Shown in pieces: positions 2,781 through 56,422 of a DNA stretch of 60,247 bases. Position numbers and translations under genes: made by a program. Source of the stretch: a virus; IMG/VR virus record IMGVR_UViG_3300023118_000002, positions 1-60,247 of that record; one strand, 5' to 3'. Numbering within the stretch: position 1 is the stretch's first letter; each line of letters opens with the position of its first letter. The notes under the pieces are model-generated. The model saw only the letters and a program-made list of their open reading frames with translations, ran no database searches and was not told the origin of the DNA.

Positions 2781-2932
2781 AATCCGGTTCCTTCACATTC
2801 CGGACAGTGGCAGACTTCGAATTCCATGTAGCCGCACGCTTCGCATTTACACGGTCCCCGATCGTCTGGTACCAGATCATTGAAACATCGATCTGTAGTC
2901 TTGCCGGGGGAGAGCTCGGAAGCTAATGGCAA
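2777..2932 (-). CDS. Small Cys-rich zinc-ribbon-like protein (about 51 aa, TTG start)
   Basis: The frame ends with CKCEACGY and CHCPECEGTG, two CxxC-type knuckles that would bind zinc, so the frame is protein-like. No ATG fits; a TTG lies 7 nt after GGGAGG inside the 3' end of the upstream gene (56-nt overlap). The downstream GTG overlaps its TGA. The start is uncertain. An alternative 35-aa frame begins at the ATGA overlap but looks like non-coding sequence. Confidence 0.45.
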   Translation of the reverse strand: MPLASELSPGKTTDRCFNDLVPDDRGPCKCEACGYMEFEVCHCPECEGTGL

Positions 2933-3671
2933 GACAAGGCCTCCCATCCGGAGTCAGCGCACTGTTGAACTCGATACTCATCTTGTTCTCAGGAGCGAAT
3001 CCGACCTGTTCGCCGACAACGGCGTCTTCGAGACCTACCAGGTGATAGAACTCGTTGAGTGACATGTACATCTCACCGTCAATAAGCATTTCGTTGATGT
3101 CGTTCTGAGCAGAACGAATCTTCTCCATACTCGAGGTGAAATATCGACGGGTGTAGGTGTCGAGGCAAAGTACGTCTCCGGTACCGATCACAAGAGCGTC
3201 TTCGCTAGGCGGAGGATTCTTTTCGATCTGCTTCTTGACTACCTCGGTACGGACCTGATCTTCCTTGGTCTTTCCGAGTGCCTCTACTACCTGCTCTTTG
3301 TACTCCTGGAACGCGCCTTCAGTAATTGCGAAAGCACCTACAAGAGCGGCCTGACGCCTCGAGTTGATGCTCTGAGCACCGATGATACAGGCGACCGTTG
3401 CAGCTCCAGTTGACAATGCCGGAATATAAAGCGTCCAGTTGAGCTTGACCAGATCCCAATTGGTAAGAAGCTTAGGTTCAGCTCCTCCTGCTTTATATTC
3501 CGCCTCCATGTCACTGATGAGGTTGTCGGTTTTACGGACGGCTCTAGGTGTTGCTTTGACCGCCAGTATAGCTGTACTGAAAACTCCAGCTACGGCCAGA
3601 CCCGTCAGGATGACAGGTGACTTTGTTTGAACGCCTTTTACAGCATTCCTAGCGACGACGGCGAGGGACAT
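2877..3671 (-). CDS. Membrane protein of the DUF6353-like phage family (paralogue 1)
   Basis: The protein has an N-terminal membrane helix (residues ~19-38), a second hydrophobic region (~78-100), then a long cytosolic or periplasmic domain ending in a conserved LNEFYHLVGLEDAVVGEQVG block. The layout and several blocks match the 299-aa protein at 55234..56130 (P-x-x-L-T-G, S-x-x-F-x-x-Y-x-x-x-V-x-x-x-L-G, LNE-x-Y-x-x-x-G, V-G), so the two are paralogues. I recognise the family from phages of Firmicutes and actinobacteria, from memory as DUF6353; its role is unknown. The start overlaps the end of the upstream gene by 23 nt. Confidence 0.8.
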   Translation of the reverse strand: MSLAVVARNAVKGVQTKSPVILTGLAVAGVFSTAILAVKATPRAVRKTDNLISDMEAEYKAGGAEPKLLTNWDLVKLNWTLYIPALSTGAATVACIIGAQSINSRRQAALVGAFAITEGAFQEYKEQVVEALGKTKEDQVRTEVVKKQIEKNPPPSEDALVIGTGDVLCLDTYTRRYFTSSMEKIRSAQNDINEMLIDGEMYMSLNEFYHLVGLEDAVVGEQVGFAPENKMSIEFNSALTPDGRPCLAISFRALPRQDYRSMFQ

Positions 3672-34030: not shown

Positions 34031-36766
34031 CTACTTGTCAAGTGCTGAGTACAGTGTACTGGTAGAGATACCTAGTCTAGATGCAATCTCCGCAACTGTA
34101 TAGTTGCCTGATGCTAACATGGACTGGGCTAATGCAAGGCTAGCATTGTTAACCTTGGGCCTATCTCTTGGTGTGGCGAGGGATCTAAGATCTTCAACAT
34201 CTGTATTGTCAATGATCTGCTTAAGCTTACTGGCGGTAATGGCACCGGATTGAATGGCGTTCCATTCTTCATCAGTAATCTTAATCTTAATCTTACCAGC
34301 ACCAACCCTAGTACGTGCCTCAGTAAGGGCCATACCATTGACCTTCTTGAGGTCTGCCTTATCAATACCGGGGTTCGCTTCAACCTTAGCCCTTACAATA
34401 GACTGGGCCAACAACTGGGCTTGTCTTTCGAGGGGGGCATTCTTTAGAGCAATGTTTAGCTTAGCATTTAGAGACTTAACCTCATTACTGTAAACACTCT
34501 TAGCAGACTGGCTGTATGGAATGTTCTTAATAGTGAGGGACTCTTTTCTAGCTTCATTAGCAAGAGCCTTTAGACTATTAGCATGATCAGCATAGATGCG
34601 TTCAATTAGGGTACCACCATTACCAGACACAAGGGTATGTGCGTCATTGGTATAGGCGCCTTTCTTAACCTTCTCACGAGAGATGGTAACTTCACCCTTT
34701 TTGTTTGTATAGGTTTCATCAGCAATTACATAATGCTTGTTACCCTTAGCATCAGTCTCCCAATGAGAACCCTTTGGTACGTACATCTTCTCACCAGTAG
34801 CTGCATCAATAGGACCACCAAGGTGCACAGGCCGAGGCTTGCGAGCATCAATGTTTTTATCAGATGTAGTTCTAGAGATCAGTGTAGAGGCACCTTTTTT
34901 AGCACCATTCTGATACTTGCGCTTTAGCTCGTTAATGTTGTTGTCAAGAGCAGAAGCCTTGTAATCTAAGTTGTGTTTCTCAGCATCGATAACAACCATC
35001 GAATGACGAACAGCTCGAGCAATCTCACTTTCATGAGCACCCTTAATAGTCATGTCCGTAATTAGATTAGAAACATCACCCATAAGCTGTTGCTTAAGAC
35101 CGCCTGGATTCTTAGCTCCAGCAAGACCCTTAGTAGAATCTTTCGGAAGCTTGTACAACTCTTTAGGATCAAAGTTCTTAAGTCCACTAAGAGCGGCGGA
35201 AGTCTTAACTTTTCCGTCGTTATTAGGAATTACAAGAACTGTATCACCATCAAAGTCTGCACCTGACAGACGTTCTGCTACCTTGGCATTGATTCCAACT
35301 GCGTCCCTAGCATTCAAAGTAATTGAACGGCGAGCTTCCTTATTACTGTTGTTTACAGTAAGTTGTGGAATCTCAAAGATGCCACCATGAGGGTGACGAA
35401 CTAGAGTGACCACATCTCCATCGTGATACTTAGGAGCAAAGATTTCCGTTTCACTAAGACTGTTAATTGGAAGGATTACATGGTTTGCAGTTCTCGGAAG
35501 ACCAGTTGCTTGAAGTTTCACAGCTGAAGAATCAGCCTCGTCTGCATAAGTCTCGAGCAGCTTGCGCTTAACTCCAGGGTTTGTCAGAGCAAGGATGTCT
35601 TCTAGATCCGCACGCTTTGAGTTCTGCGTAAGATCCAACTGAGCTTTAGCAAGGGCCGGCGTCTGCTTCGAAAGGAACTGTGACGAGAAGTTATTAGACC
35701 AGGTGTACCAATCACCTTCCTCATTCACAATGTTCAGAGGCGAACGCTCAACCTTACCTGTCTTAGGATCTGTGTAACCCTTAGGCCGAGTAATAGAACC
35801 AAACGGATTCGATTCGTCTCCAGTCTGAGGCTTCAAAGCGTCTAGCTTGTTACCGGTATCTTTTTTGTTGGTATTGAACAGAATGTCAACGCCCTTAGGC
35901 AGATCATCCTTGTACATTGCCATACCCTTGATGTAGTGCGTACCATCAACAGGGACACGAACCTGAGCATAGTTTGCATTGCCCAAAGAAATGTCAGCGA
36001 CACCCGGACGAAGGTACATCACACCATCAGAAGCAGCACCACCGTCAGGACCATACTTAACCTCAACACGCTTCGAACTGATGTTAACAAGAGGGCCCAA
36101 ATCGGCGGCTTTCTTATTAGTATCAGGATCGATGTATTCAGCGATGCTATGGATTTTATCCTTGTTGTGATAAACCTCTTTAGCAGTTGTAGATTCGTGT
36201 ACTAAGACCTTCAAAGAAGTCTTCTTACCGGTACCTACCTGAGTTACGTCGGTGTAACGAATAACGTAACCCTGGTCCTTAAGCATAGCAATGCCCGTCT
36301 TAAGAGTCGTGTCACTGATTCCCATGTGGTTCTCAGTACCCTTACCGACATCGACATACTTGTACTTGTCAACGTTGTCTTTAAGGATGTTAGCAACAAC
36401 CTGGTTACGATTAGCACGCTCCTGAACAATGGGGTCCATAAGAGCCCGAACAGAAGATTCGTTCATACCCAACTGCTTACCGATTGCGCTGTTGCTCATA
36501 CCCTTATCTTTAAGAGCCATGATACGACGAGTTTTCTCGGCACGAACATCGTTAGAAGAGATAGAGCGGCGAGCACGGAGATCAGCTGTAGAACTAAAAC
36601 CCAGTCCCTCAGCAATCTTAACCTCACTCAAACCCTTCTTCTTAAGATCTTCATAGGCTGCTAGAAAGCTGACGCCACTTTGGTAAGGGTCTTCACCTGA
36701 ACCCCAAGGATAGCGTCCTGAGTGATGCGGAGTACCATAGTGAGCGAGCGTTGATTCGTCATTCAC
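34031..36766 (-). CDS. Putative virion RNA polymerase (DFDGD, two-barrel/YonO-like type, 911 aa)
   Basis: The motif RLSGADFDGDTVLVIP (about residue 515) is the metal-binding DxDGD loop of double-psi beta-barrel RNA polymerases. The N-terminus, from GTG after AAGGAGACCTTCG, reads MNDESTLAHYGTPHHSGRYP, with the LAHYG site found in other proposed capsid cargo. Two helix-turn-helix-like repeats follow (KGLSEVKIAEGLGFSS; KGMSNSAIGKQLGMNESS), and a third ends the protein (YTVAEIASRLGISTSTLYSAL). The family is found, to my knowledge, in many phages of gut Firmicutes. I infer that the enzyme is packaged and transcribes early genes at infection. Catalytic activity is predicted, not shown. Confidence 0.8.
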   Translation of the reverse strand: MNDESTLAHYGTPHHSGRYPWGSGEDPYQSGVSFLAAYEDLKKKGLSEVKIAEGLGFSSTADLRARRSISSNDVRAEKTRRIMALKDKGMSNSAIGKQLGMNESSVRALMDPIVQERANRNQVVANILKDNVDKYKYVDVGKGTENHMGISDTTLKTGIAMLKDQGYVIRYTDVTQVGTGKKTSLKVLVHESTTAKEVYHNKDKIHSIAEYIDPDTNKKAADLGPLVNISSKRVEVKYGPDGGAASDGVMYLRPGVADISLGNANYAQVRVPVDGTHYIKGMAMYKDDLPKGVDILFNTNKKDTGNKLDALKPQTGDESNPFGSITRPKGYTDPKTGKVERSPLNIVNEEGDWYTWSNNFSSQFLSKQTPALAKAQLDLTQNSKRADLEDILALTNPGVKRKLLETYADEADSSAVKLQATGLPRTANHVILPINSLSETEIFAPKYHDGDVVTLVRHPHGGIFEIPQLTVNNSNKEARRSITLNARDAVGINAKVAERLSGADFDGDTVLVIPNNDGKVKTSAALSGLKNFDPKELYKLPKDSTKGLAGAKNPGGLKQQLMGDVSNLITDMTIKGAHESEIARAVRHSMVVIDAEKHNLDYKASALDNNINELKRKYQNGAKKGASTLISRTTSDKNIDARKPRPVHLGGPIDAATGEKMYVPKGSHWETDAKGNKHYVIADETYTNKKGEVTISREKVKKGAYTNDAHTLVSGNGGTLIERIYADHANSLKALANEARKESLTIKNIPYSQSAKSVYSNEVKSLNAKLNIALKNAPLERQAQLLAQSIVRAKVEANPGIDKADLKKVNGMALTEARTRVGAGKIKIKITDEEWNAIQSGAITASKLKQIIDNTDVEDLRSLATPRDRPKVNNASLALAQSMLASGNYTVAEIASRLGISTSTLYSALDK

Positions 36767-37343
36767 CGAAGGTCTCCTTATCGATCTCAGTAATGCGGCG
36801 GTCAAAGGTTTTGATTGAATCGATGATGTGCATCAAGTCATCCAGATCCGGAACATAGATCTCAACTGCATCGCCCTTGTAGATACGAAGTTCGATGTCG
36901 ATGTCGGCCGGGTTGTGACCATACTCGAGACAAAAGATGCAGGCATAGATTTCAAGCTGGCGCATGTAAGTACGAGTAGTACCAGTCTTGAGATCATGAA
37001 TGCGAAGCATCCAACGTTCAGTCTTGGGATCGTAACGGAATGAAATGGTGTCAGCTGTACCGAAACAATTTGGAGAGTAGTACAAAGGCTGCTCTGGCTG
37101 CATTTTGAAACCGATACCGTCATTGACGTAAAGGTTCATAGTCTTACGAACGTCAGGCATTTTAACCCGAAGCGCGATCAGTTCTGCAGCGAGAGCGTGC
37201 TTACGATCTCCGAGCCTAGCTGCCTGAGCAGTGTAGACTCTTTTGTCCATAGCTTCTTCATCATAGTTAGTCCAGCTCGGGTTGCTGGGTGCCATGAGGT
37301 TAGCGTGCTTACCTGCCAACTCGTAGTGCGGATTGAAGCGCAT
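36759..37343 (-). CDS. PD-(D/E)XK nuclease, Cas4/RecB-like (194 aa)
   Basis: CFGTADTISFRYDPKTERWMLRIHDLKTG and QLEIYACIFCLEYG form the core of a RecB/Cas4-type exonuclease (G-x-x-D, then I-x-D-x-K, then Q-x-x-x-Y). No Fe-S cysteine set is visible. It probably works with the VRR-NUC nuclease upstream in DNA processing or recombination. The ATG lies after GGAGGTTCTTG. It overlaps the polymerase start by 8 nt. Confidence 0.8.
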   Translation of the reverse strand: MRFNPHYELAGKHANLMAPSNPSWTNYDEEAMDKRVYTAQAARLGDRKHALAAELIALRVKMPDVRKTMNLYVNDGIGFKMQPEQPLYYSPNCFGTADTISFRYDPKTERWMLRIHDLKTGTTRTYMRQLEIYACIFCLEYGHNPADIDIELRIYKGDAVEIYVPDLDDLMHIIDSIKTFDRRITEIDKETFGE

Positions 37344-39259: not shown

Positions 39260-40498
39260 CTATGCTGCTTTCGCGTATACCGACTTGTAGTATTTGTTCT
39301 CGTTAAAGGTTTTCTTAGTTGCTATCGCTTTCGAAATTGCGTTATCAATGGGACTGTTGGATCTGAGCGTGTAGTAGTATAGATCTGTATACGGGGTGTT
39401 GAGCCGATCAATTCTTCCCATTGACTGTTCCATGATACGGTACGAGTAATTGAGAGACCAGAAAACAATCGTGTCAGTAGTGATGCAATTCCAACCCTCT
39501 GCCCCAGCCGTATATTGAACAAAATATAGCCAGCGCTCTTTATCAGGTATCTCTTCATGCTTTTGACCATTATACTCCGCATATTCAGACAAAGTAGAGC
39601 TACCAAGTGTCCTTAGCATCTCTAATTCGTAATTGAAATTGTAGAAGACAATCAACCTTGGATGCTTTTCCATCAACTGCATCAAGGCGCCATACCGATC
39701 TTTATCCGTATTGACGACTTTTCGCATCAGGCCAAACATCTCCTGCACATCCTTGATTGGACGTTCCTCATAGATATGCCAGCGGTCTTTAACTACACGA
39801 TTAAAGAGTCCTTCGTCATAATTGACGATAATATTGGAAGTATGTCTCGTTGTCCGTCGTAGATAAGGCATCTCAACCAGCACACGTTGACGAAGTGCGT
39901 TGAGATGACGGGTTTCCACATAATGATCGATTTTTGGGAACGAGGAGAAGTTGTTGTAAACCACGTGCCGCCTTGTGAATTCCTTTCGATTTTTATAGAA
40001 CCCATTGGCAATGAAAATCGGTGCATAGTCCATCCACGTATCACCCGGGGTCGCAGAAAGGACCACCCACTTATTGGCCTTAGCAATCTTAAGGAAGGCC
40101 TTAACCCAAGCTCCACTACCAACAAGCCGTTGCTCGTCAAAAATGAAAAACGCATTAGTTACCTCCTTATATGATTCGATATTGTTCCAGGAATCAACCT
40201 TGACCTTTGTTTTACCGTTAACGGAAGTACCGTCAGCCGATAGTCCAAACGGCGGAAGTTCTGCTTCCCACTCAAGTGAGTTTCGCTTTTTCGCCGTAGT
40301 GATGATATAAAGGTCTCTAGGCTTTCTAGCATCGAACCAATCACCTTTACCATTGATTCGAACGCCTCCCTCAGCGACGTAAGCCCAGTAATAAAAGATC
40401 GCAGTACGGCTCTTGCCTGTGCCGACACCACCTTTGAGGACACATCCATTATGCATCTCCTTTGCTGCTTTGATTTGATGTGGGTCTAGCTCAAGCAT
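39260..40498 (-). CDS. SF2 (SNF2-like) DNA helicase (412 aa)
   Basis: All main helicase motifs are visible: I GGVGTGKSRT (~24-33), II FFIFDEQRL (DEQR in place of DEAH), III VVLSATPGD, V/VI GAEGWNC and MEQSMGRIDRLNTP. A short N-terminal Q-like element (LELDPHQIKAAKEM) precedes motif I. The enzyme probably remodels forks or branched DNA with the VRR-NUC nuclease. ATG follows CAGGAAACTTG; the upstream extension lacks a binding site. Confidence 0.88.
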   Translation of the reverse strand: MLELDPHQIKAAKEMHNGCVLKGGVGTGKSRTAIFYYWAYVAEGGVRINGKGDWFDARKPRDLYIITTAKKRNSLEWEAELPPFGLSADGTSVNGKTKVKVDSWNNIESYKEVTNAFFIFDEQRLVGSGAWVKAFLKIAKANKWVVLSATPGDTWMDYAPIFIANGFYKNRKEFTRRHVVYNNFSSFPKIDHYVETRHLNALRQRVLVEMPYLRRTTRHTSNIIVNYDEGLFNRVVKDRWHIYEERPIKDVQEMFGLMRKVVNTDKDRYGALMQLMEKHPRLIVFYNFNYELEMLRTLGSSTLSEYAEYNGQKHEEIPDKERWLYFVQYTAGAEGWNCITTDTIVFWSLNYSYRIMEQSMGRIDRLNTPYTDLYYYTLRSNSPIDNAISKAIATKKTFNENKYYKSVYAKAA

Positions 40499-40676
40499 CA
40501 AGTTTCCTGTAACCGAGTGCCATATGTAGCTGCTTAGGCGCATCGGGCTCAACCAACTGCATAGTGTCCGCTACAGCCTGAGCTACACTATCCGAGAAAG
40601 TTTTCTTCGTGAGCTTCTTAGGGATCTTAACTATTATCTGGCCGTGGCCTTCTATGTTAATTTTAATTTTAGCCAT
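40491..40676 (-). CDS. Hypothetical protein (61 aa)
   Basis: The N-terminus forms a beta hairpin (AKIKINIEGHGQIIVKIPKK) followed by a helix (TFSDSVAQAVADTMQLV). This beta-beta-alpha composition suggests a small DNA- or protein-binding fold. It overlaps the helicase start by 8 nt and may be a helicase accessory protein. Confidence 0.6.
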   Translation of the reverse strand: MAKIKINIEGHGQIIVKIPKKLTKKTFSDSVAQAVADTMQLVEPDAPKQLHMALGYRKLDA

Positions 40677-47652: not shown

Positions 47653-48174
47653 TTAGAAAGGCTCTTCGAGAGGGTTCTCGCGGAACACAACACTAGATTG
47701 CGTACTGCTGATCTTGTTCTCGGGGACCTCTGCATACTTCATCTCGAGCTCGTCTTCCTCGATGGTGAAGTATCCACTACGAAGGTAGGCAGTAATACCC
47801 TGCTTACCGTTGAAGTCATAGTGGTAGGGGTTGACGATCAGGTCGACATTGGTGAGCACAGCCCAGTCCAGCATCGGCATGTCTTCCTCGTCGAGAGTCG
47901 TCTTGTTGCGTGAAGTCACAAGGACCAGACGCGGACGCGGCTCGCTGTTGAAGTTGACCTTGATCTTAAGGAAGGGCTGGGGCTGATCATCGTCATCACG
48001 AGGCTTGAGGTACTTCACGTTCCAGCCATCGGCCTTCATCTGAGTAGCCACATCGTCGTTCAGGAGAACCAGGAAGTTACGCTCTCCCTTGTTGTTGAAC
48101 TGTCCCTCCTTACCCGAGAAGTTACGGATACGGATCTGGACGCCCTCCATAGTGACGTCATCTTTGCGTGCCAT
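47653..48174 (-). CDS. Probable ssDNA-binding protein (173 aa)
   Basis: The pattern VTMEGVQIRIRNFSGKEGQFNNKGERNF, ADGWNVKYLKPRDDDDQPQP, then KTTLDEEDMPMLDWAVLTNVDLIVNPY and GITAYLRSGYFTIEEDELEMKY is that of a conserved protein that I recognise in replication regions of Firmicutes and actinophages. Beta-rich content and position downstream of the polymerase support an OB-fold SSB. The start ATG lies after AAGGAAGACTAAGCAA; the longer frame has no binding site. Role not proven. Confidence 0.7.
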   Translation of the reverse strand: MARKDDVTMEGVQIRIRNFSGKEGQFNNKGERNFLVLLNDDVATQMKADGWNVKYLKPRDDDDQPQPFLKIKVNFNSEPRPRLVLVTSRNKTTLDEEDMPMLDWAVLTNVDLIVNPYHYDFNGKQGITAYLRSGYFTIEEDELEMKYAEVPENKISSTQSSVVFRENPLEEPF

Positions 48175-48178
48175 TTGC

Positions 48179-48529
48179 TTAGTCTTCCTTCTGCAGTTCG
48201 TCGTTCTTTGCGATTGCCTTGTGCGCCCACATGGACGCTTCCTCGAGTGCGGTCTGAGCAAGGTCTGCTTCACGAGACTTACCGAGACGACGGTTCAATC
48301 CCTTAGCAAAGCCCTTGAAGTTCTCTCGCAGTTCAGCGTGCTGAGCAGTACTATTGTTCGGACCCTCGATGGTCGCCTTGTGGAAACCAAAGCGGTTCTC
48401 GATCTCGTCATCGCTAAGCAGGGTGTTCTCGAACTGCACCACCTCGATACCTTCGGGAAGAGGCTGTCCCGCCGGCCAGATCGGCTCCTGGGGCTGCCCA
48501 ACCGGGCTCTGGGTGTTGAATTCACTCAT
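48179..48529 (-). CDS. Acb2/Tad1-type cyclic-nucleotide sponge, putative anti-CBASS/anti-Thoeris protein (116 aa)
   Basis: Residues ~38-113 form a hairpin domain: LSDDEIENRFGFHKAT, HAELRENFKGFAKGLNRRL, SREADLAQTALEEASMWAHKAIAKN. The pattern I-x-x-R-[FY], then L-R-x-x-x-x-x-[FL]-A, then S-R-E-x-x-L-A-x-T-x-L-E-E-A-x-M-W-A-x-x-A-I-A-[RK]-N is the Acb2/Tad1 hairpin family that sequesters cyclic oligonucleotide or gcADPR signals. I infer that it protects this phage against CBASS or Thoeris. The N-terminal ~37 residues are a Pro-rich extension. It lies between the SSB-like gene and a small gene. Confidence 0.8.
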   Translation of the reverse strand: MSEFNTQSPVGQPQEPIWPAGQPLPEGIEVVQFENTLLSDDEIENRFGFHKATIEGPNNSTAQHAELRENFKGFAKGLNRRLGKSREADLAQTALEEASMWAHKAIAKNDELQKED

Positions 48530-49127: not shown

Positions 49128-49525
49128 ACCACTGCTCCAATCACGATCAGGGCGTCAAACACGACGCCATATAGAATACCTCGCCAAAGCCACTTACGCT
49201 TGTCTTCACGACGCTGGTTGTGACTCAGATCGTTCATAGCAAGAACAAGAGCCGCGGCTTTGACCTGCTGCATACTTCTAATCGACTGAACCGCATGACC
49301 CATTAGATGACGCATACCGCCTTTGAGATCGTGATCGGCGTCATAACCCAGATCTTCTATCTGCCGAATCCTTTCAGACATGACGTAGTAGTTCCACTGG
49401 TCCGCGTTCATCGTATCGACAGGCGGGATGTCTTTATACTCAGTGCAAGTACAATTACTAATCAAACAACGAGTGTCACCTTCTGCATGGTATGCGGTTT
49501 TATGCATACAGTTTGCACACCTCAT
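49109..49525 (-). CDS. Zinc-knuckle and membrane-anchor protein (138 aa)
   Basis: The N-terminus MRCANCMHKTAYHAEGDTRC and NCTCTEY has CxxC and CxC zinc sites; a helical middle (ERIRQIEDLGYDADHDLKGG) leads to a C-terminal membrane helix (GILYGVVFDALIVIGAVVW). It is thus a tail-anchored zinc protein. ATG overlaps the polymerase stop (ATGA), so it is translated directly after the polymerase. Confidence 0.65.
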   Translation of the reverse strand: MRCANCMHKTAYHAEGDTRCLISNCTCTEYKDIPPVDTMNADQWNYYVMSERIRQIEDLGYDADHDLKGGMRHLMGHAVQSIRSMQQVKAAALVLAMNDLSHNQRREDKRKWLWRGILYGVVFDALIVIGAVVWTAVL

Positions 49526-52500
49526 GATACGAACCATTCCACATCACCGAACTTGGCAATATTGTCCTTGGCATCGTCAACCAGATGATCGAAGTAACGC
49601 ATGTCGATTGACTTCTCCAACCCCATGGTCTTTACCATCTCAGACTCGAGCCACAAATATCCCGTAGCTCCGGTAGCCGAATGGAACTTCCCATCCTTCT
49701 CACGCTGAAGCAGTCCACCACCCTCAGTTACAGGGCAGAAGACTCCGGTCTTACCAACGAAACGCTTGTTGTCATTAGCGAGGGCCATCATCTCCTTGTC
49801 ATTAGTGAAGTCAAGCCAAAGACTCGTCTGGACCGACTTGGTCTCACACTTGTCCTTAAAGAGAATGTTCTGATGCGTGAAGAGCTTCTTGAAGACGTAC
49901 GGGTGCTTAAACTGCGCTCCCGTGGCATCCCATTCAGCCGGCTTACGTCCGTCAGTTTTCTTACCCACGAACACCGCGTCATTGACAAGACAGATCTTTT
50001 CGTAAGTTGCCTCGTGCTCGAACTCGTATCCGTAGTTCTGACCGAACTCCATGACAGCGTCGATGATGGTCTTAGGATCAGTATCCTTGGGCACCACAAT
50101 CTTGATCGAGTCGGTCTTGATGTGAATGACCTGGTAGCCGAACTCCTGCACCATCTGCTTGCAGAGAATCATGAAGAGAGCTCCACGCTTTGCCACAATG
50201 TTGTCGACATTGCGAGGATCACGGAATGCGTTTTCAAACTTCTGCATGGTGAGCCCGTAAACGATGTTGATAACAATCTTAAGCGCGTATGCCAGAGCGT
50301 CAGAACCAGAAGTGTCCTCGAGGTACTTGGCAAGCCGTCCACCAAACATTTCCCTAGCCTCGTCGAAGTTCTTACGCTTAATAGCGATACGAGCCTTCTT
50401 GATTTCGGCATAGTTCTTGGTGTACTCATCTCCAAAGAGGTTGAGCAGCTCGATCGAGGTCGGATGCATAGATGCAACGTCCAGGAGCACAACGTTCTCG
50501 TACATACCTGGCTCGGCATAAACGTACCCACCTTCACCTGTGATCTCACCATGGAAAGTCGACTTACCACTCTCAAAGGTGTATCCGGGGAATTCATCAG
50601 CAAGGTTCGTATAAACGAATTCCTCCTGCGGCCGACGGTTCTCACCGAAGACAATACGAGCCGCGTGCTGCTGAGTAGTAGCGTTAGCCGAAAGACCGGA
50701 AAGCTCAGACAGAATCTGACGAGCAATGAAGTCTTCCTTACGAGCATCAAACACTGCCTCAGTTGCGCGCACATCGTTTTCACAATATGCTGCAATCTGA
50801 TCCCACATGTCTTCTGGCGCTGGCTTGTCCCATGGAATACTCATCTCAACGTGAGGAATATCCAGATCGACTTCCCACTTCTTCAAGCTCTTCTTCTCAT
50901 TTGCGAAGTCAAAGACGTCGGTATAAGAGAGGTTGTAGGCTTCACCGAAGGTGGCATTCGGTACGTTGCTGATCAGCTTCTGACTGAGCTTGTAAAGCCG
51001 CTCGTTGTCATAACCAAGATAGCGAGCATACAGAATGTGATTGTCGTACTTCCGGTTGTTGAACCCGACGAGACGAAACTTGAGAAGTTGCTCGACCTCT
51101 GCAGGTGATGGGTTGATCATGGTAGTGACGTTCTCAGCACCATAATACTTCCAGCAGATCATGAAGAGGTTGGAATATACCTCAAGGTCAAAGATGACGA
51201 TTGGTACTTCCTTAACCTCCTCTTCAACATCCTCATACTTCTCTTCCGACACCTCAGAAGCAAACTTCATCTGAGCTACCAGACGCATAGCCGGCAACGC
51301 TTGGTTGGTCGAGTTTCCTGCAAAGGCAAGGATCTTGTTACGCATGTCAGTCACGTCATAGACGAGGTCTGAGGCATACGCATCTTCTAGAATCTTATGA
51401 ATGAAGTCCACACTAGATTTGGTACCAGGATGAATCTCCTTCCGCAGGTTCCGGTCGATCAATTCCCGGAGAGCTTTCTCCGACTTGATCTGGTCTGAAT
51501 TCATCACTTTTTTCTCCTTGGTTGGAAGTGCTCCAGGATGGAGAGTTGCCACGGGTATATTGTTACACCGAGACAATCTTCTACGAAGGCTTGCATCTCC
51601 ATTAAAGACTTTGACTTCGATTCCATCGTCGTAGACCGACGAGAGTTCCGAGACGTCTCCGTCATAGATATAGTGGAGGTGGATGCCCGCGCCACTCTTG
51701 GAGAACTCCGCGTATGTGCTAGGCCACGAGCTCGCTTTCTCGAGGCTCCTTTCCGCGCTTTTTTCACCGGTTGCATCCCTCAAATCGAAGTCGATCACAA
51801 TATGATTCTGCGGTACCTTAACGTAATGCTCTTGGGTAGTGTCAAGATCCTGCAGCATAGTATGGACTACTTTAGAATCGGCAGGAATATACTCTTTACC
51901 ATCCTTACCGATCCTCGGGTTGTTCGTCCAGAACTTCATGTAACCGTCGTCGTTCACAGAATACTGCGCCGGCATGGTTGCCATCTCACGATCGAACAGG
52001 CTTTCGGTTTCGTCCATTACCAAAGAGAACACTCGAGCTTCCTCGACATGCTTCTGTGACTTGAACTTGTCAGCAGTAAACCCGGTGTACCAGCTGCGAC
52101 TGCGTGTTCCATCCTCTGCAATGTGAACGTCTTCGAAGTTCTCGAAGTAATTCTTAAGCTCCTCACGGAACTTGTACATCGGCATAGAGAATGAGAGATC
52201 AGCTTCTTTAACGTAATCCTTGTACAGATCGAAAGCTCTTTTGAGACTAATTCCCTCCGGGTCTTTTAGGTCCTCCCAATGCCACTCAACGAAGTTGAAG
52301 AACACGTCAGTTTGCAACATCATGTCCTCCGGCACATACCCCGAGTAGTAATCCTTACCCATGTTGCGATAAACCTCGAGGGCGTGAGACGCAATTGCCC
52401 CAAGCTCGAACTCAATACGCGACATAAGTGCCTGATACTTACGAGGACTAACCTTGTTACCCGTAGGCTTCACGTCGATGAGACGACGCAACAGACCGCT

Positions 52501-53358
52501 CTTCGAGTCCGTAATCTTCACAGGCTTGTTAGTACCCATGAAGAGGAAGGCGTTGAAGAACATGTCATACGAAGGCTTGTACTTCTCGTTTACATTCATT
52601 ACCTCATGCGAGACAATAGAGTTGAGAGTGGTGTTGTCTTCGATTTTGGAGAGGTCGCCATCATGCTGTATCGCCACAAGCGGGTTGCTTTTGAAGGCTT
52701 CAGTGGCAAAGGCATTGTTATTACCAGTGAGCTGCTTGGCATTGAAGGTAACGAAATATCCTTCAGTGAGCTTTTGCAGGATGAGTAGGAAGGTAGACTT
52801 ACCAGTACCAGCGGCTCCGTAAAGAACAACAAATTTCTGGATCTGTTTAGCATCTCCGGCAATAATAGCTCCGAGAGCCCACTCAAGCTTGGCTCTCTCA
52901 TCAGGAGAGTATAGCGTTCCAATGAGCTCATCGTATGCTGAGTAATCTCCGGGTTGTAATGAATATGCCAGTCGTCTTGAAACATAGTCTTCTTTTTTCA
53001 CCTCCGTATTAGCAAATGTCAGGTCCACGTCAAGCTGTGTGCTGTTGTCACTAAGATGTCCGATGTAATTCCTGAATTGCAACCACGTATTCGTGCTGAA
53101 GTTGCCCAGGTACTTACGATGAACTTCCGTAACTGGTTCGGTGGTTACCTCATAAGCTTTAATATCCTCGTCTACTAGACGCTGAACATCGTACTCATCG
53201 GTTGACCAAAGACCCTTTGCTTCGTCCCAGATGGCATAGAAACTCCGGCCTCGGACCATAAGATCCTTGGAACGGATGACCTTGAAGTCAGGATATACCT
53301 CAACAACTCCAAGCTTTTTGCCTTCTAGCGGCCGCTCCTTAATTTGATCGAAATCCAT
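49522..53358 (-). CDS. Fused SF3 helicase, PrimPol and family B DNA polymerase (1278 aa)
   Basis: Three replication modules are joined. (1) Residues ~1-480: SF3/D5-type helicase with Walker A GAAGTGKST (181-189) and FLFMGTNKP / LLRRLIDVKPTG sensor blocks. (2) ~490-650: archaeo-eukaryotic PrimPol, VIDFDLRDATG (DxD) and SGAGIHLHYIY (sGxHxH). (3) ~720-1278: polymerase B with exonuclease motifs IFDLEVY, FNNRKYDNHILY and YCENDVRA, and polymerase motifs DVASMHPTSI (A), KIVINIVYG (B) and IKTDSI (C). One chain could unwind, prime and extend. Other phages usually encode these in two or three genes. Confidence 0.9.
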   Translation of the reverse strand: MDFDQIKERPLEGKKLGVVEVYPDFKVIRSKDLMVRGRSFYAIWDEAKGLWSTDEYDVQRLVDEDIKAYEVTTEPVTEVHRKYLGNFSTNTWLQFRNYIGHLSDNSTQLDVDLTFANTEVKKEDYVSRRLAYSLQPGDYSAYDELIGTLYSPDERAKLEWALGAIIAGDAKQIQKFVVLYGAAGTGKSTFLLILQKLTEGYFVTFNAKQLTGNNNAFATEAFKSNPLVAIQHDGDLSKIEDNTTLNSIVSHEVMNVNEKYKPSYDMFFNAFLFMGTNKPVKITDSKSGLLRRLIDVKPTGNKVSPRKYQALMSRIEFELGAIASHALEVYRNMGKDYYSGYVPEDMMLQTDVFFNFVEWHWEDLKDPEGISLKRAFDLYKDYVKEADLSFSMPMYKFREELKNYFENFEDVHIAEDGTRSRSWYTGFTADKFKSQKHVEEARVFSLVMDETESLFDREMATMPAQYSVNDDGYMKFWTNNPRIGKDGKEYIPADSKVVHTMLQDLDTTQEHYVKVPQNHIVIDFDLRDATGEKSAERSLEKASSWPSTYAEFSKSGAGIHLHYIYDGDVSELSSVYDDGIEVKVFNGDASLRRRLSRCNNIPVATLHPGALPTKEKKVMNSDQIKSEKALRELIDRNLRKEIHPGTKSSVDFIHKILEDAYASDLVYDVTDMRNKILAFAGNSTNQALPAMRLVAQMKFASEVSEEKYEDVEEEVKEVPIVIFDLEVYSNLFMICWKYYGAENVTTMINPSPAEVEQLLKFRLVGFNNRKYDNHILYARYLGYDNERLYKLSQKLISNVPNATFGEAYNLSYTDVFDFANEKKSLKKWEVDLDIPHVEMSIPWDKPAPEDMWDQIAAYCENDVRATEAVFDARKEDFIARQILSELSGLSANATTQQHAARIVFGENRRPQEEFVYTNLADEFPGYTFESGKSTFHGEITGEGGYVYAEPGMYENVVLLDVASMHPTSIELLNLFGDEYTKNYAEIKKARIAIKRKNFDEAREMFGGRLAKYLEDTSGSDALAYALKIVINIVYGLTMQKFENAFRDPRNVDNIVAKRGALFMILCKQMVQEFGYQVIHIKTDSIKIVVPKDTDPKTIIDAVMEFGQNYGYEFEHEATYEKICLVNDAVFVGKKTDGRKPAEWDATGAQFKHPYVFKKLFTHQNILFKDKCETKSVQTSLWLDFTNDKEMMALANDNKRFVGKTGVFCPVTEGGGLLQREKDGKFHSATGATGYLWLESEMVKTMGLEKSIDMRYFDHLVDDAKDNIAKFGDVEWFVS

Positions 53359-53382
53359 TGGGCCTCCTTTCAGGAGCGTTTG

Positions 53383-53928
53383 CTATACATTGATGTTCTC
53401 CATCAAGTATTGGGACATTTGGTACCATATCTCGACTTCCCGCTGGTCGTGTCCAGGGTGTCGAAGAGGGAACAACCCCTCACTTCCATCTGCTCGATAG
53501 GTGCGGTTGACGACTCCACGAATAAGTTCGTCAATTTCAATCTGGACCTGGTCGTTAAACATCTCATCGACGTAACGACGCAGGTCCAGATTATCCATTA
53601 ATCTCCAGAACCAATAGTCGGTACCCATCTGGGTCTCGAAATCCATTCTGCCGGCGAGGGCGACGACCATCTCAAGGAAACTGCATGGCTCTGATAGCCA
53701 CATCCCATCGACGTCGCCGCCCTCTTCCTCATCTACAAATCGCTGGCGCAAGTCCAGACCATCGTAGAGTCGGTTGTCATCATTAGGAATGAACCAGCTG
53801 AACTCAACCTTGTAAAGCTGCACGCACAGAAGCCAATGACTCCTTGCCGGATTACGCTGAGTGTCTGGTTCAAGTTGACGGTGTAGCCAGGTTAGATACC
53901 GCTCATCGAGTGTTCCATTAGTCGCCAT
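53383..53928 (-). CDS. Conserved protein with IPNDDNR-DGLDLR signature (181 aa)
   Basis: The motif FSWFIPNDDNRLYDGLDLRQRF, then EPCSFLEMVVALAGRMD, YWFWRLMDNLDL and GLFPLRHPGHDQREVEIWYQM is characteristic of a phage protein that I recognise from many genomes of Firmicutes phages; no function is established. It lies right downstream of the polymerase fusion and near the other shared families. Confidence 0.8.
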   Translation of the reverse strand: MATNGTLDERYLTWLHRQLEPDTQRNPARSHWLLCVQLYKVEFSWFIPNDDNRLYDGLDLRQRFVDEEEGGDVDGMWLSEPCSFLEMVVALAGRMDFETQMGTDYWFWRLMDNLDLRRYVDEMFNDQVQIEIDELIRGVVNRTYRADGSEGLFPLRHPGHDQREVEIWYQMSQYLMENINV

Positions 53929-54733
53929 CACTCTCCCGCATCTTGAGCGGCTTCGTCATCATCCGCTTCATTTCATCCTCTGGGATGATGTTAAGGACCA
54001 CACGGGTGTACGTCCGGTCGTCACGAGTGACCTCGTAGTCGTTCTCCTGACGCTCGTCACGGATATAGACCTGGTTCTCGTCGGTAGTTCCCTGGCCCCA
54101 CTTCTGATCGAAGAGCTCACCCAGAACTTGCTTGGGGTTCGGAACGATCTGCTCACTCGAGTCGATGAGCGTCTCATCCCCTTCGAAATATGTCAGCTCG
54201 AGCTTCGAGTAAGGGCTTTCGCTCTCCATGTACTCGTCGATCGAGATGACATACGGACCGTTGGGATCACGAACCGTTGTGAAGCTGGGCACAGAAGGCA
54301 CCGGAATATCCGCGTCAGCATCAACGTCGTCTACCTGGCCCGGGAAAGTAACTCCGCCGTAAGGAACAGTCTGACTCTTGAACTTCTCGATGATGCCCTT
54401 GACGTCTACCTGATTCTCAGGATCGTCATCATCAGACTCCGTCGGCTTCGGATCTGCCGAGTCGTACTCATCGATCACACCTGGATCTTCAAGAGGCTGC
54501 TCATGCTCGAGCGGACCGGTCTCCGGGTGAAGCTCAGCAACGGCCGATTCCGGAGTTGCATAGGGACCAGTCTTGTTGGCGCGATGAATATCGTCAATCC
54601 AGTCAGCCCGGATCTCTTCGACTGCTTTGTTGAAGCCCTTGGTTGCCCGGCGCATCGCTGCGAAATATCCGATGCCGAAACCGGCTCCCAGTCCTGCCGC
54701 GACAAGACCAGCGTATTTAAGTTTGATGTTCAT
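53918..54733 (-). CDS. Membrane-anchored acidic protein with conserved C-terminal domain (271 aa)
   Basis: An N-terminal membrane helix (YAGLVAAGLGAGFGIGYFAA) precedes a long acidic linker (residues ~50-150). The C-terminal ~100 residues have ISIDEYMESESPYSKLELTYFEGDETLIDSS and NQVYIRDERQENDYEVTRDDRTYTRVVL, a domain that I recognise from conserved phage membrane proteins of Firmicutes and actinobacteria. It overlaps the next gene by 11 nt. Function unknown. Confidence 0.8.
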   Translation of the reverse strand: MNIKLKYAGLVAAGLGAGFGIGYFAAMRRATKGFNKAVEEIRADWIDDIHRANKTGPYATPESAVAELHPETGPLEHEQPLEDPGVIDEYDSADPKPTESDDDDPENQVDVKGIIEKFKSQTVPYGGVTFPGQVDDVDADADIPVPSVPSFTTVRDPNGPYVISIDEYMESESPYSKLELTYFEGDETLIDSSEQIVPNPKQVLGELFDQKWGQGTTDENQVYIRDERQENDYEVTRDDRTYTRVVLNIIPEDEMKRMMTKPLKMRESDGD

Positions 54734-55233: not shown

Positions 55234-56130
55234 TTAGATCTTGTCGTAGATCACCCCGTCGACGTTGAAGTCGAGCCAGATGTTCTTTTCCCAACCGTTG
55301 ATGAAGTTGCGCTTGGACTGAGTGGATGCGTCATACAGACCAAAGTCGATGAAGTTGTCACCGTCCTTGCTGATGATCCATCCCACAACTGCACCTTCAG
55401 GGGTGTGCGGGAATCCGAGACGCTCATAAACCTCATTGAGGAAGATGTGCCCGGTTGCAAGCAGCTTGTCATTGAGTCGGTTCTGCTCGGACGTCAAGAA
55501 GAACTGGTTGTAACCAGCTCCATCCTGCCAGTAGTCATTACCCTCATCAAAGACACGAGCGTACTTGCTCATCTTGGTCGGGTCGACCTCAGTGACCACA
55601 GTCTTCTTACCGTCAGGACCCTTCTCCGAAGACTCGGTGATGCCCAGTCGGTAGTCCCGATCTTTGTCTGCACCGAGGTCCTCGATCACACGAGCACGGT
55701 AAGCCGCGAAGCTCTTCTCAACTGCGTTGTATGCAGCGACAAGTGCGACGTTACGCTTACGCATGATGCCGTGACCTGCAAGGATTGCTCCAGCACCGGA
55801 GATAAAGAGGGACGTAGCAGGGCCATAGAGCTTGGTGAACTCCAGCACGTTTCTCAAATATACTCTGTAAAGCTGGCGCTTGTAGTTGGCCTCGGTGTAC
55901 TCTTCAACCTCGTCAGGGTTTTCCTGAGAGAGAGCATAAGACTGCTTCGTGTCGTTGACACGGCGCTCAGCACGAGCAACCGTTTCTTCAAGACGAAGGG
56001 TAGAACGAACCGCGAGAAAAGCTCCGGCGGACATACTGACAAGACCAACGCCCGTCAGAATCTCCGGCGCGTACTTCTTGACCAGCAGCCCACCTCGGCC
56101 TACAACACCGTTGAGGCTAGTTGGTACCAT
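55234..56130 (-). CDS. Membrane protein of the DUF6353-like phage family (paralogue 2, about 298 aa)
   Basis: Two membrane helices (about residues 22-43 and 107-130) with a charged coil between, then a soluble domain with HIFLNEVYERLGFPHTPEGAVVGWI and the end WEKNIWLDFNVDGVIYD. The layout matches the paralogue at 2877..3671. I recall this family (DUF6353) from many phages; in Firmicutes phages it lies near the IPNDDNR and SVADLYDL families, as here. Function unknown. Confidence 0.8.
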   Translation of the reverse strand: MVPTSLNGVVGRGGLLVKKYAPEILTGVGLVSMSAGAFLAVRSTLRLEETVARAERRVNDTKQSYALSQENPDEVEEYTEANYKRQLYRVYLRNVLEFTKLYGPATSLFISGAGAILAGHGIMRKRNVALVAAYNAVEKSFAAYRARVIEDLGADKDRDYRLGITESSEKGPDGKKTVVTEVDPTKMSKYARVFDEGNDYWQDGAGYNQFFLTSEQNRLNDKLLATGHIFLNEVYERLGFPHTPEGAVVGWIISKDGDNFIDFGLYDASTQSKRNFINGWEKNIWLDFNVDGVIYDKI

Positions 56131-56422
56131 CATTTTTCTCCTTCATTTCTATTTCTAGTTGTTTCTCTTCCGGAGTCTTAGGTCGGACTCGGAATTCTTG
56201 TCGAACGCTGAATCTGTGATCCTCTTCTACAAGGATGTTATCAGCTCGGATGATTGTGACGGGGTATTCTTCGATCACGTAGTAAAGCGCAAATACTTCA
56301 GGAGACAGACCAGACGCATGGACCATCGCCTCAAGCCATTGCTCTTTGTCGTAAGCGATCGAGTCAACGATGTTCATGACGAACTCTTGAAACTGGAAAG
56401 GCCCGTCTCCTGTGTCAGGCAT
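56117..56422 (-). CDS. Hypothetical protein (101 aa)
   Basis: A soluble protein with FQFQEFVMNIVDSIAYDKEQ and a Glu/Lys-rich C-terminal helix (EEKQLEIEMKEKNDGTN). The ATG lies inside the end of the upstream gene (8-nt overlap). The longer frame would overlap the upstream gene by more than 200 nt, so I chose this ATG. Confidence 0.55.
   Translation of the reverse strand: MPDTGDGPFQFQEFVMNIVDSIAYDKEQWLEAMVHASGLSPEVFALYYVIEEYPVTIIRADNILVEEDHRFSVRQEFRVRPKTPEEKQLEIEMKEKNDGTN

What the first reader, a model, noticed from the sequence alone, without database searches (positions are those of the whole stretch)
49522..53358. Helicase, primase-polymerase and DNA polymerase B in one 1278-residue protein
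Walker A GAAGTGKST, PrimPol VIDFDLRD and SGAGIHLHYIY, exonuclease FDLE, and polymerase DVASMHP/KIVINIVYG/KTDS motifs follow one another in a single reading frame. This would be an almost complete single-chain replisome (unwind, prime, extend, proofread). I know separate versions in other phages but not this exact fusion with certainty.
Basis: partly seen in the sequence, partly recalled or inferred. Interest (0 to 1): 0.75.

Follow-up and report, generated by a model that had tools for sequence, protein, structure and literature searches.

The report
Known four-in-one phage DNA replicase
This phage gene encodes one protein that combines a DNA-unwinding, a primer-making, a DNA-copying and a proofreading part; it is a real but ordinary new member of a replicase family that was named in 2020 and shown to work in 2025 (GP55 of Lactococcus phage 1706).

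Summary
Homology, profiles and AlphaFold models support an N-terminal SF3 helicase (1-437), a short archaeo-eukaryotic primase domain (about 460-612), a helical domain (613-700) and a family-B polymerase with 3'-5' exonuclease (721-1278). The fusion is not a sequencing artefact: all 80 IMG/VR relatives fetched and 13 phage proteins compared keep the modules in one frame, with catalytic residues nearly invariant. It is not novel. The architecture is the 'HelPrimPolB' group of family-B polymerases (PMC7544198, 2020). The Lactococcus phage 1706 homologue GP55, 41% identical over its full length, has been shown to have helicase, RNA-primase, polymerase and exonuclease activities (PMC12205980, 2025). 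All seven GP55 residues whose mutation is described in the text I read are conserved here. PHROG 4210 covers the whole protein, and 252 GenBank phage records hold it nearly full length, mostly as 'DNA primase/polymerase'. The helicase module is the one most diverged from GP55 (31%), so GP55's UTP/dTTP dependence is the trait least safely transferred.

The parts
49522..53358 (-). HelPrimPolB / GP55-type multidomain replicase, 1278 aa, ATG start, TGA stop
53363..53368 (-). Shine-Dalgarno AGGAGG, 4 nt before the ATG
52048..53358 (-). Module 1, residues 1-437: SF3 (D5/P4-type) helicase; Walker A 181-189 (52792-52818), acidic IQHDGD 230-235 (52654-52671), sensor N277, arginines R291/R292
   Evidence: DUF5906 7e-13; NCBIfam primase_Cterm 7.5e-13, under its curated cut-off; VIA-align Z 21.8 to SaPI5 primase-helicase 7ola and Z about 18 to vaccinia D5; K187 and R291/R292 invariant in 94 sequences
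51523..51981 (-). Module 2, residues 460-612: PriS-like archaeo-eukaryotic primase domain; motif I D523/D525, motif II H560/H562, motif III E581
   Evidence: Prim-Pol PF09250 in 20 of 27 family members at a lax cut-off, best 2.5e-4; PHROG primase families at 6.5e-4 and weaker; catalytic residues invariant in 94 sequences
51259..51522 (-). Module 3, residues 613-700: helical domain equivalent to the GP55 aHD (Y667 = GP55 Y655, F679 = GP55 F667); four helices predicted at 627-638, 649-662, 670-681, 687-696
51199..51258 (-). Variable linker, residues 701-720, low confidence in the models
50659..51198 (-). Module 4a, residues 721-900: 3'-5' exonuclease; D724/E726, D772, Y858/D862
   Evidence: D724/E726 = GP55 D712/E714
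49525..50658 (-). Module 4b, residues 901-1278: family-B polymerase core; motif A D960, motif B K1027-G1035, motif C KTDS 1081-1084
   Evidence: E. coli Pol II 1.3e-7 by profile; Z 17.2 to 13 to pol alpha, KOD and Pol II; D960 = GP55 D949
47653..48273 (-). Separate phage ssDNA-binding / single-strand annealing protein, likely partner of the replicase
   Evidence: Phage_ssDNA_bind 8e-64; phrog_4787 4e-60

Best explanation
The gene encodes a GP55-type (HelPrimPolB) replicase that carries out most of genome replication for a tailed phage in one polypeptide. The SF3 helicase opens the duplex ahead of the enzyme. The PriS-like domain, with its helical partner domain, lays down a short primer. The C-terminal family-B polymerase extends the primer and its exonuclease domain proofreads. 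Shown here: the intact reading frame, the domain order, conservation of all catalytic residues, and homology along the full length to a biochemically characterised enzyme. Shown elsewhere for the homologue GP55: all four activities, priming by ribonucleotides starting with GTP, strand displacement that needs the helicase, a dimer in solution, and primase and polymerase working in trans. Inferred for this protein: every activity, nucleotide preference, oligomeric state and its in vivo role.
For: Full-length match to PHROG 4210 and to 252 phage records. GP55 is 41% identical end to end, with K189, D509, D712, E714, D949, Y655 and F667 all conserved. All 80 IMG/VR loci fetched, of 462 relatives found, carry the same single-ORF fusion. 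AlphaFold models (mean pLDDT 84 and 85) match SF3 primase-helicases at Z 21.8 and family-B polymerases at Z 17.2. Non-synonymous change is far below synonymous change in every module against the 78% identical L052. Biochemistry of GP55: PMC12205980. Family name: PMC7544198.
Against: No assay exists for this protein. The fold of the primase domain was not matched to a solved structure by itself: the profile search of the solved structures gave only chance hits, and the fold searches were filled by the helicase and the polymerase. The helicase module is only 31% identical to that of GP55, against 59.7% for PriS and 45-46% for the exonuclease and polymerase.
Confidence: 0.95

Rival explanations
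1. Only polymerase, exonuclease and primase work; the N-terminal ATPase is not a processive replicative helicase but a primase accessory or an origin-melting motor, as proposed for related D5/P4-type ATPases.
For: In GP55 the helicase domain was dispensable for de novo synthesis on single-stranded M13, and the protein was a dimer rather than a hexamer. The helicase module is the one most diverged from GP55. Most relatives whose surroundings I viewed encode further helicases elsewhere, and this window has an SF2-type helicase at 39260-40552.
Against: GP55 unwinds DNA and displaces strands in a helicase-dependent way. Walker A lysine, sensor asparagine and the two arginines are invariant in 94 sequences.
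Confidence: 0.15
2. The fusion is an assembly or sequencing artefact, or a chance run of motifs.
For: None found.
Against: The same fusion occurs in isolated, fully sequenced phages and in 80 independent metagenome contigs. Purifying selection acts in every module.
Confidence: 0.01
3. The AEP domain here acts as a polymerase or gap-filling enzyme rather than as a primase, with primers coming from the phage's own RNA-polymerase-like protein (34031-36805).
For: The RNA-polymerase-like gene has nearly the same distribution among phage records as the replicase.
Against: GP55's PriS domain makes RNA primers and needs no partner. Residues needed for this, including Y655 and F667 in the helical domain, are conserved here.
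Confidence: 0.04

Closest known systems
GP55 of Lactococcus phage 1706 (PMC12205980)
   Same: Same module order along the full length; all seven mutated catalytic and aHD residues that I checked are conserved.
   Different: 41% identity overall; helicase only 31% identical; different phage; not assayed.
HelPrimPolB group of family-B polymerases, EpsilonN-like clade (PMC7544198)
   Same: SF3 helicase and PrimPol fused N-terminally to a PolB; this is the definition of the group.
   Different: Nothing that I could test; group placement by tree was not repeated here.
Microbacterium phage DizzyRudy gp53 and Arthrobacter, Gordonia, Streptomyces and Rhodococcus phage 'DNA primase/polymerase'
   Same: 50-60% identity over the full length.
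   Different: Isolates from known actinobacterial hosts; this window is a metagenomic virus record of unknown host with 49% GC.
SaPI5 primase-helicase (7ola), NrS-1 PrimPol (6k9c/6lrb), vaccinia D5
   Same: SF3 helicase fold joined to an AEP domain; Z 21.8, 18.2 and about 18.
   Different: In those the primase precedes the helicase and there is no polymerase B; here the helicase is first.

Membership tests
HelPrimPolB / GP55-type replicase | SF3 helicase, PrimPol and PolB in one chain, in that order | tested here: met
HelPrimPolB / GP55-type replicase | Full-length homology to GP55 | tested here: met
   41% identity over the full length
HelPrimPolB / GP55-type replicase | Helicase catalytic residues (GP55 K189) | tested here: met
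   K187, invariant in 94 sequences
HelPrimPolB / GP55-type replicase | AEP catalytic residues (GP55 D509) and SxH motif | tested here: met
   D525, D523, H560, H562, E581 invariant in 94 sequences
HelPrimPolB / GP55-type replicase | aHD residues essential for priming (GP55 Y655, F667) | tested here: met
   Y667, F679
HelPrimPolB / GP55-type replicase | Exonuclease (D712, E714) and polymerase (D949) residues | tested here: met
   D724, E726, D960
HelPrimPolB / GP55-type replicase | Placement with HelPrimPolB in a PolB tree | not tested
   No tree against the other PolB groups was built
HelPrimPolB / GP55-type replicase | Four enzyme activities; UTP/dTTP-dependent helicase; RNA priming with GTP | not testable with these tools
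   Needs purified protein; shown for GP55 only

The most novel reading that the evidence does not exclude
This large clade, made up of actinobacterial phages and environmental contigs, differs from the Lactococcus branch in its helicase module: against GP55 it is 31% identical while the other modules are 41-56% identical. The helicase may therefore have been exchanged or have evolved fast in one branch, and the nucleotide used for unwinding or the oligomeric state may differ from GP55.
Probability: 0.3. Interest if true: 0.3.

Novelty: new member of a known kind. Interest (0 to 1): 0.15.

Why it matters
It confirms that a single-chain helicase-primase-polymerase is widespread in phages outside the human-associated ones stressed in the GP55 paper: at least 462 IMG/VR stretches and 252 GenBank phage records, many from soil actinobacteria. 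It gives a well-conserved second branch in which to test which GP55 properties are general.

Tried and rejected
A single-protein scan of IMG/VR with the window protein found nothing, because the patterns were too specific; the alignment scan worked. Strict regular expressions for motifs missed many relatives and were replaced by column counts on an alignment. The GP55 strong priming site CCAAC is not clearly enriched in the window: 74 against 63 with SD 10. A hairpin over the ribosome-binding site is no better than shuffles (z 0.77) and is not conserved. A possible second SF3 copy in the window was looked for and not found. The 2016 paper cited as the first description of the architecture (doi 10.1093/nar/gkw322) is not held and was not read.

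Full report
What is there. The window is a whole IMG/VR virus record of 60,247 bases. On its minus strand, 49522-53358 is one open reading frame of 1278 codons from ATG to TGA. AGGAGG lies four bases before the ATG, and 60 of 70 relatives scored have a Shine-Dalgarno-like motif before the same start.

What the modules are. Residues 1-437 are a superfamily 3 helicase: DUF5906 at 7e-13, NCBIfam 'phage/plasmid primase, P4 family' at 7.5e-13 although under that model's curated cut-off, and an AlphaFold model (residues 1-715, mean pLDDT 83.7) that aligns with the SaPI5 primase-helicase at Z 21.8 over 373 residues, vaccinia D5 at about 18 and the NrS-1 protein at 18.2. Residues 460-612 carry the archaeo-eukaryotic primase motifs. 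Pfam Prim-Pol matches 20 of 27 family members at a lax cut-off (best 2.5e-4), and PHROG primase families match the window's own domain weakly (6.5e-4). This is the module with the weakest independent support by sequence; its strongest support is homology to GP55. Residues 613-700 are four predicted helices in the place of the GP55 aHD. Residues 721-1278 are a family-B polymerase with its exonuclease domain: E. coli Pol II at 1.3e-7 by profile, and a model (residues 440-1278, mean pLDDT 85.3) that aligns with pol alpha, KOD and Pol II at Z 17.2 to 13.

Is the fusion real. Yes. PHROG 4210 matches residues 1-1277 with 1967 bits. tblastn finds 368 phage records, 252 of them over at least 80% of the length; the listed full-length ones have 36-60% identity. 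In all 80 loci kept, the match lies in one ORF of 1195-1380 codons. Against the closest, L052 (78% identical), the proportion of changed non-synonymous sites is 0.15 overall and that of synonymous sites 0.72, with the same imbalance in each module.

Known or not. Known. Kazlauskas and colleagues named the group HelPrimPolB for exactly this architecture (PMC7544198), citing a 2016 paper that I could not read. In 2025 GP55 of Lactococcus phage 1706 was purified and shown to have helicase, RNA-primase, DNA polymerase and 3'-5' exonuclease activities, with the helical domain essential for priming (PMC12205980). The window protein aligns with GP55 end to end at 41% identity. The residues whose mutation is described in the text I read (K189, D509, Y655, F667, D712, E714, D949) correspond to K187, D525, Y667, F679, D724, E726 and D960 here, all identical. 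GP55 D509 pairs with the second aspartate of the DxD motif.

How it most likely works. As GP55: unwinding by the SF3 motor, priming by the PriS-like domain with the helical domain, hand-over to the polymerase, proofreading by its exonuclease. For this protein these steps are inferred from homology. The genome also encodes a separate ssDNA-binding/annealing protein (47653-48273), a ThyX-type thymidylate synthase, an exonuclease and an SF2-type helicase, but in the ORFs searched no second DNA polymerase or primase was found. I did not search every ORF of the window.

What differs from GP55. The helicase module is 31% identical to GP55 while PriS is 59.7%, the helical domain 37.5%, exonuclease 46.4% and polymerase 45.4%; to the IMG/VR relatives all modules are equally close at 57-61%. 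The Lactococcus branch therefore has an unusually diverged helicase, or acquired another one. GP55's UTP/dTTP dependence should not be assumed for this branch.

Verdict. A correct and careful reading by the first stage, of a protein family that is already named and characterised. Interest low.

Noticed in passing
window 34031-36805 (-): 924-aa protein, full-length phrog_4291 'RNA-dependent RNA polymerase', with GADFDGDT (the DxDGD signature of double-psi-barrel RNA polymerases, from my own knowledge) and helix-turn-helix matches at both ends; probably a YonO-like single-chain RNA polymerase, annotated in most phage records only as 'helix-turn-helix DNA-binding domain protein'. Its counts by host genus among phage records (Arthrobacter 95, Gordonia 55, Streptomyces 54, Lactococcus 13, Siphovirus 12, Curtobacterium 7, Microbacterium 4, Rhodococcus 4) equal those of the replicase, so the two seem to be inherited together.
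   Followed up: partly
L002 4983-5438 (Streptomyces phage Bing gp60) and L081 2897-3679: Small stand-alone proteins related to the SF3 helicase module (151 and 261 aa) lie a few genes upstream of the full replicase; none found in this window.
   Followed up: partly
window 2877-3671 (-) and 55234-56133 (-): Two copies of a DUF6353 (phrog_2152) gene of unknown function in one phage genome, the second close upstream of the replicase.
   Followed up: no
window 53383-53931 (-): Conserved phrog_4678 gene of unknown function directly upstream of the replicase; a gene of similar size precedes the replicase in many of the related phages viewed.
   Followed up: no
L001 7938-11888 compared with window 49522-53358: Lactococcus-branch replicases (1706, P118) have a helicase module much more diverged from all others than their other modules, which hints at module exchange or fast evolution.
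   Followed up: partly
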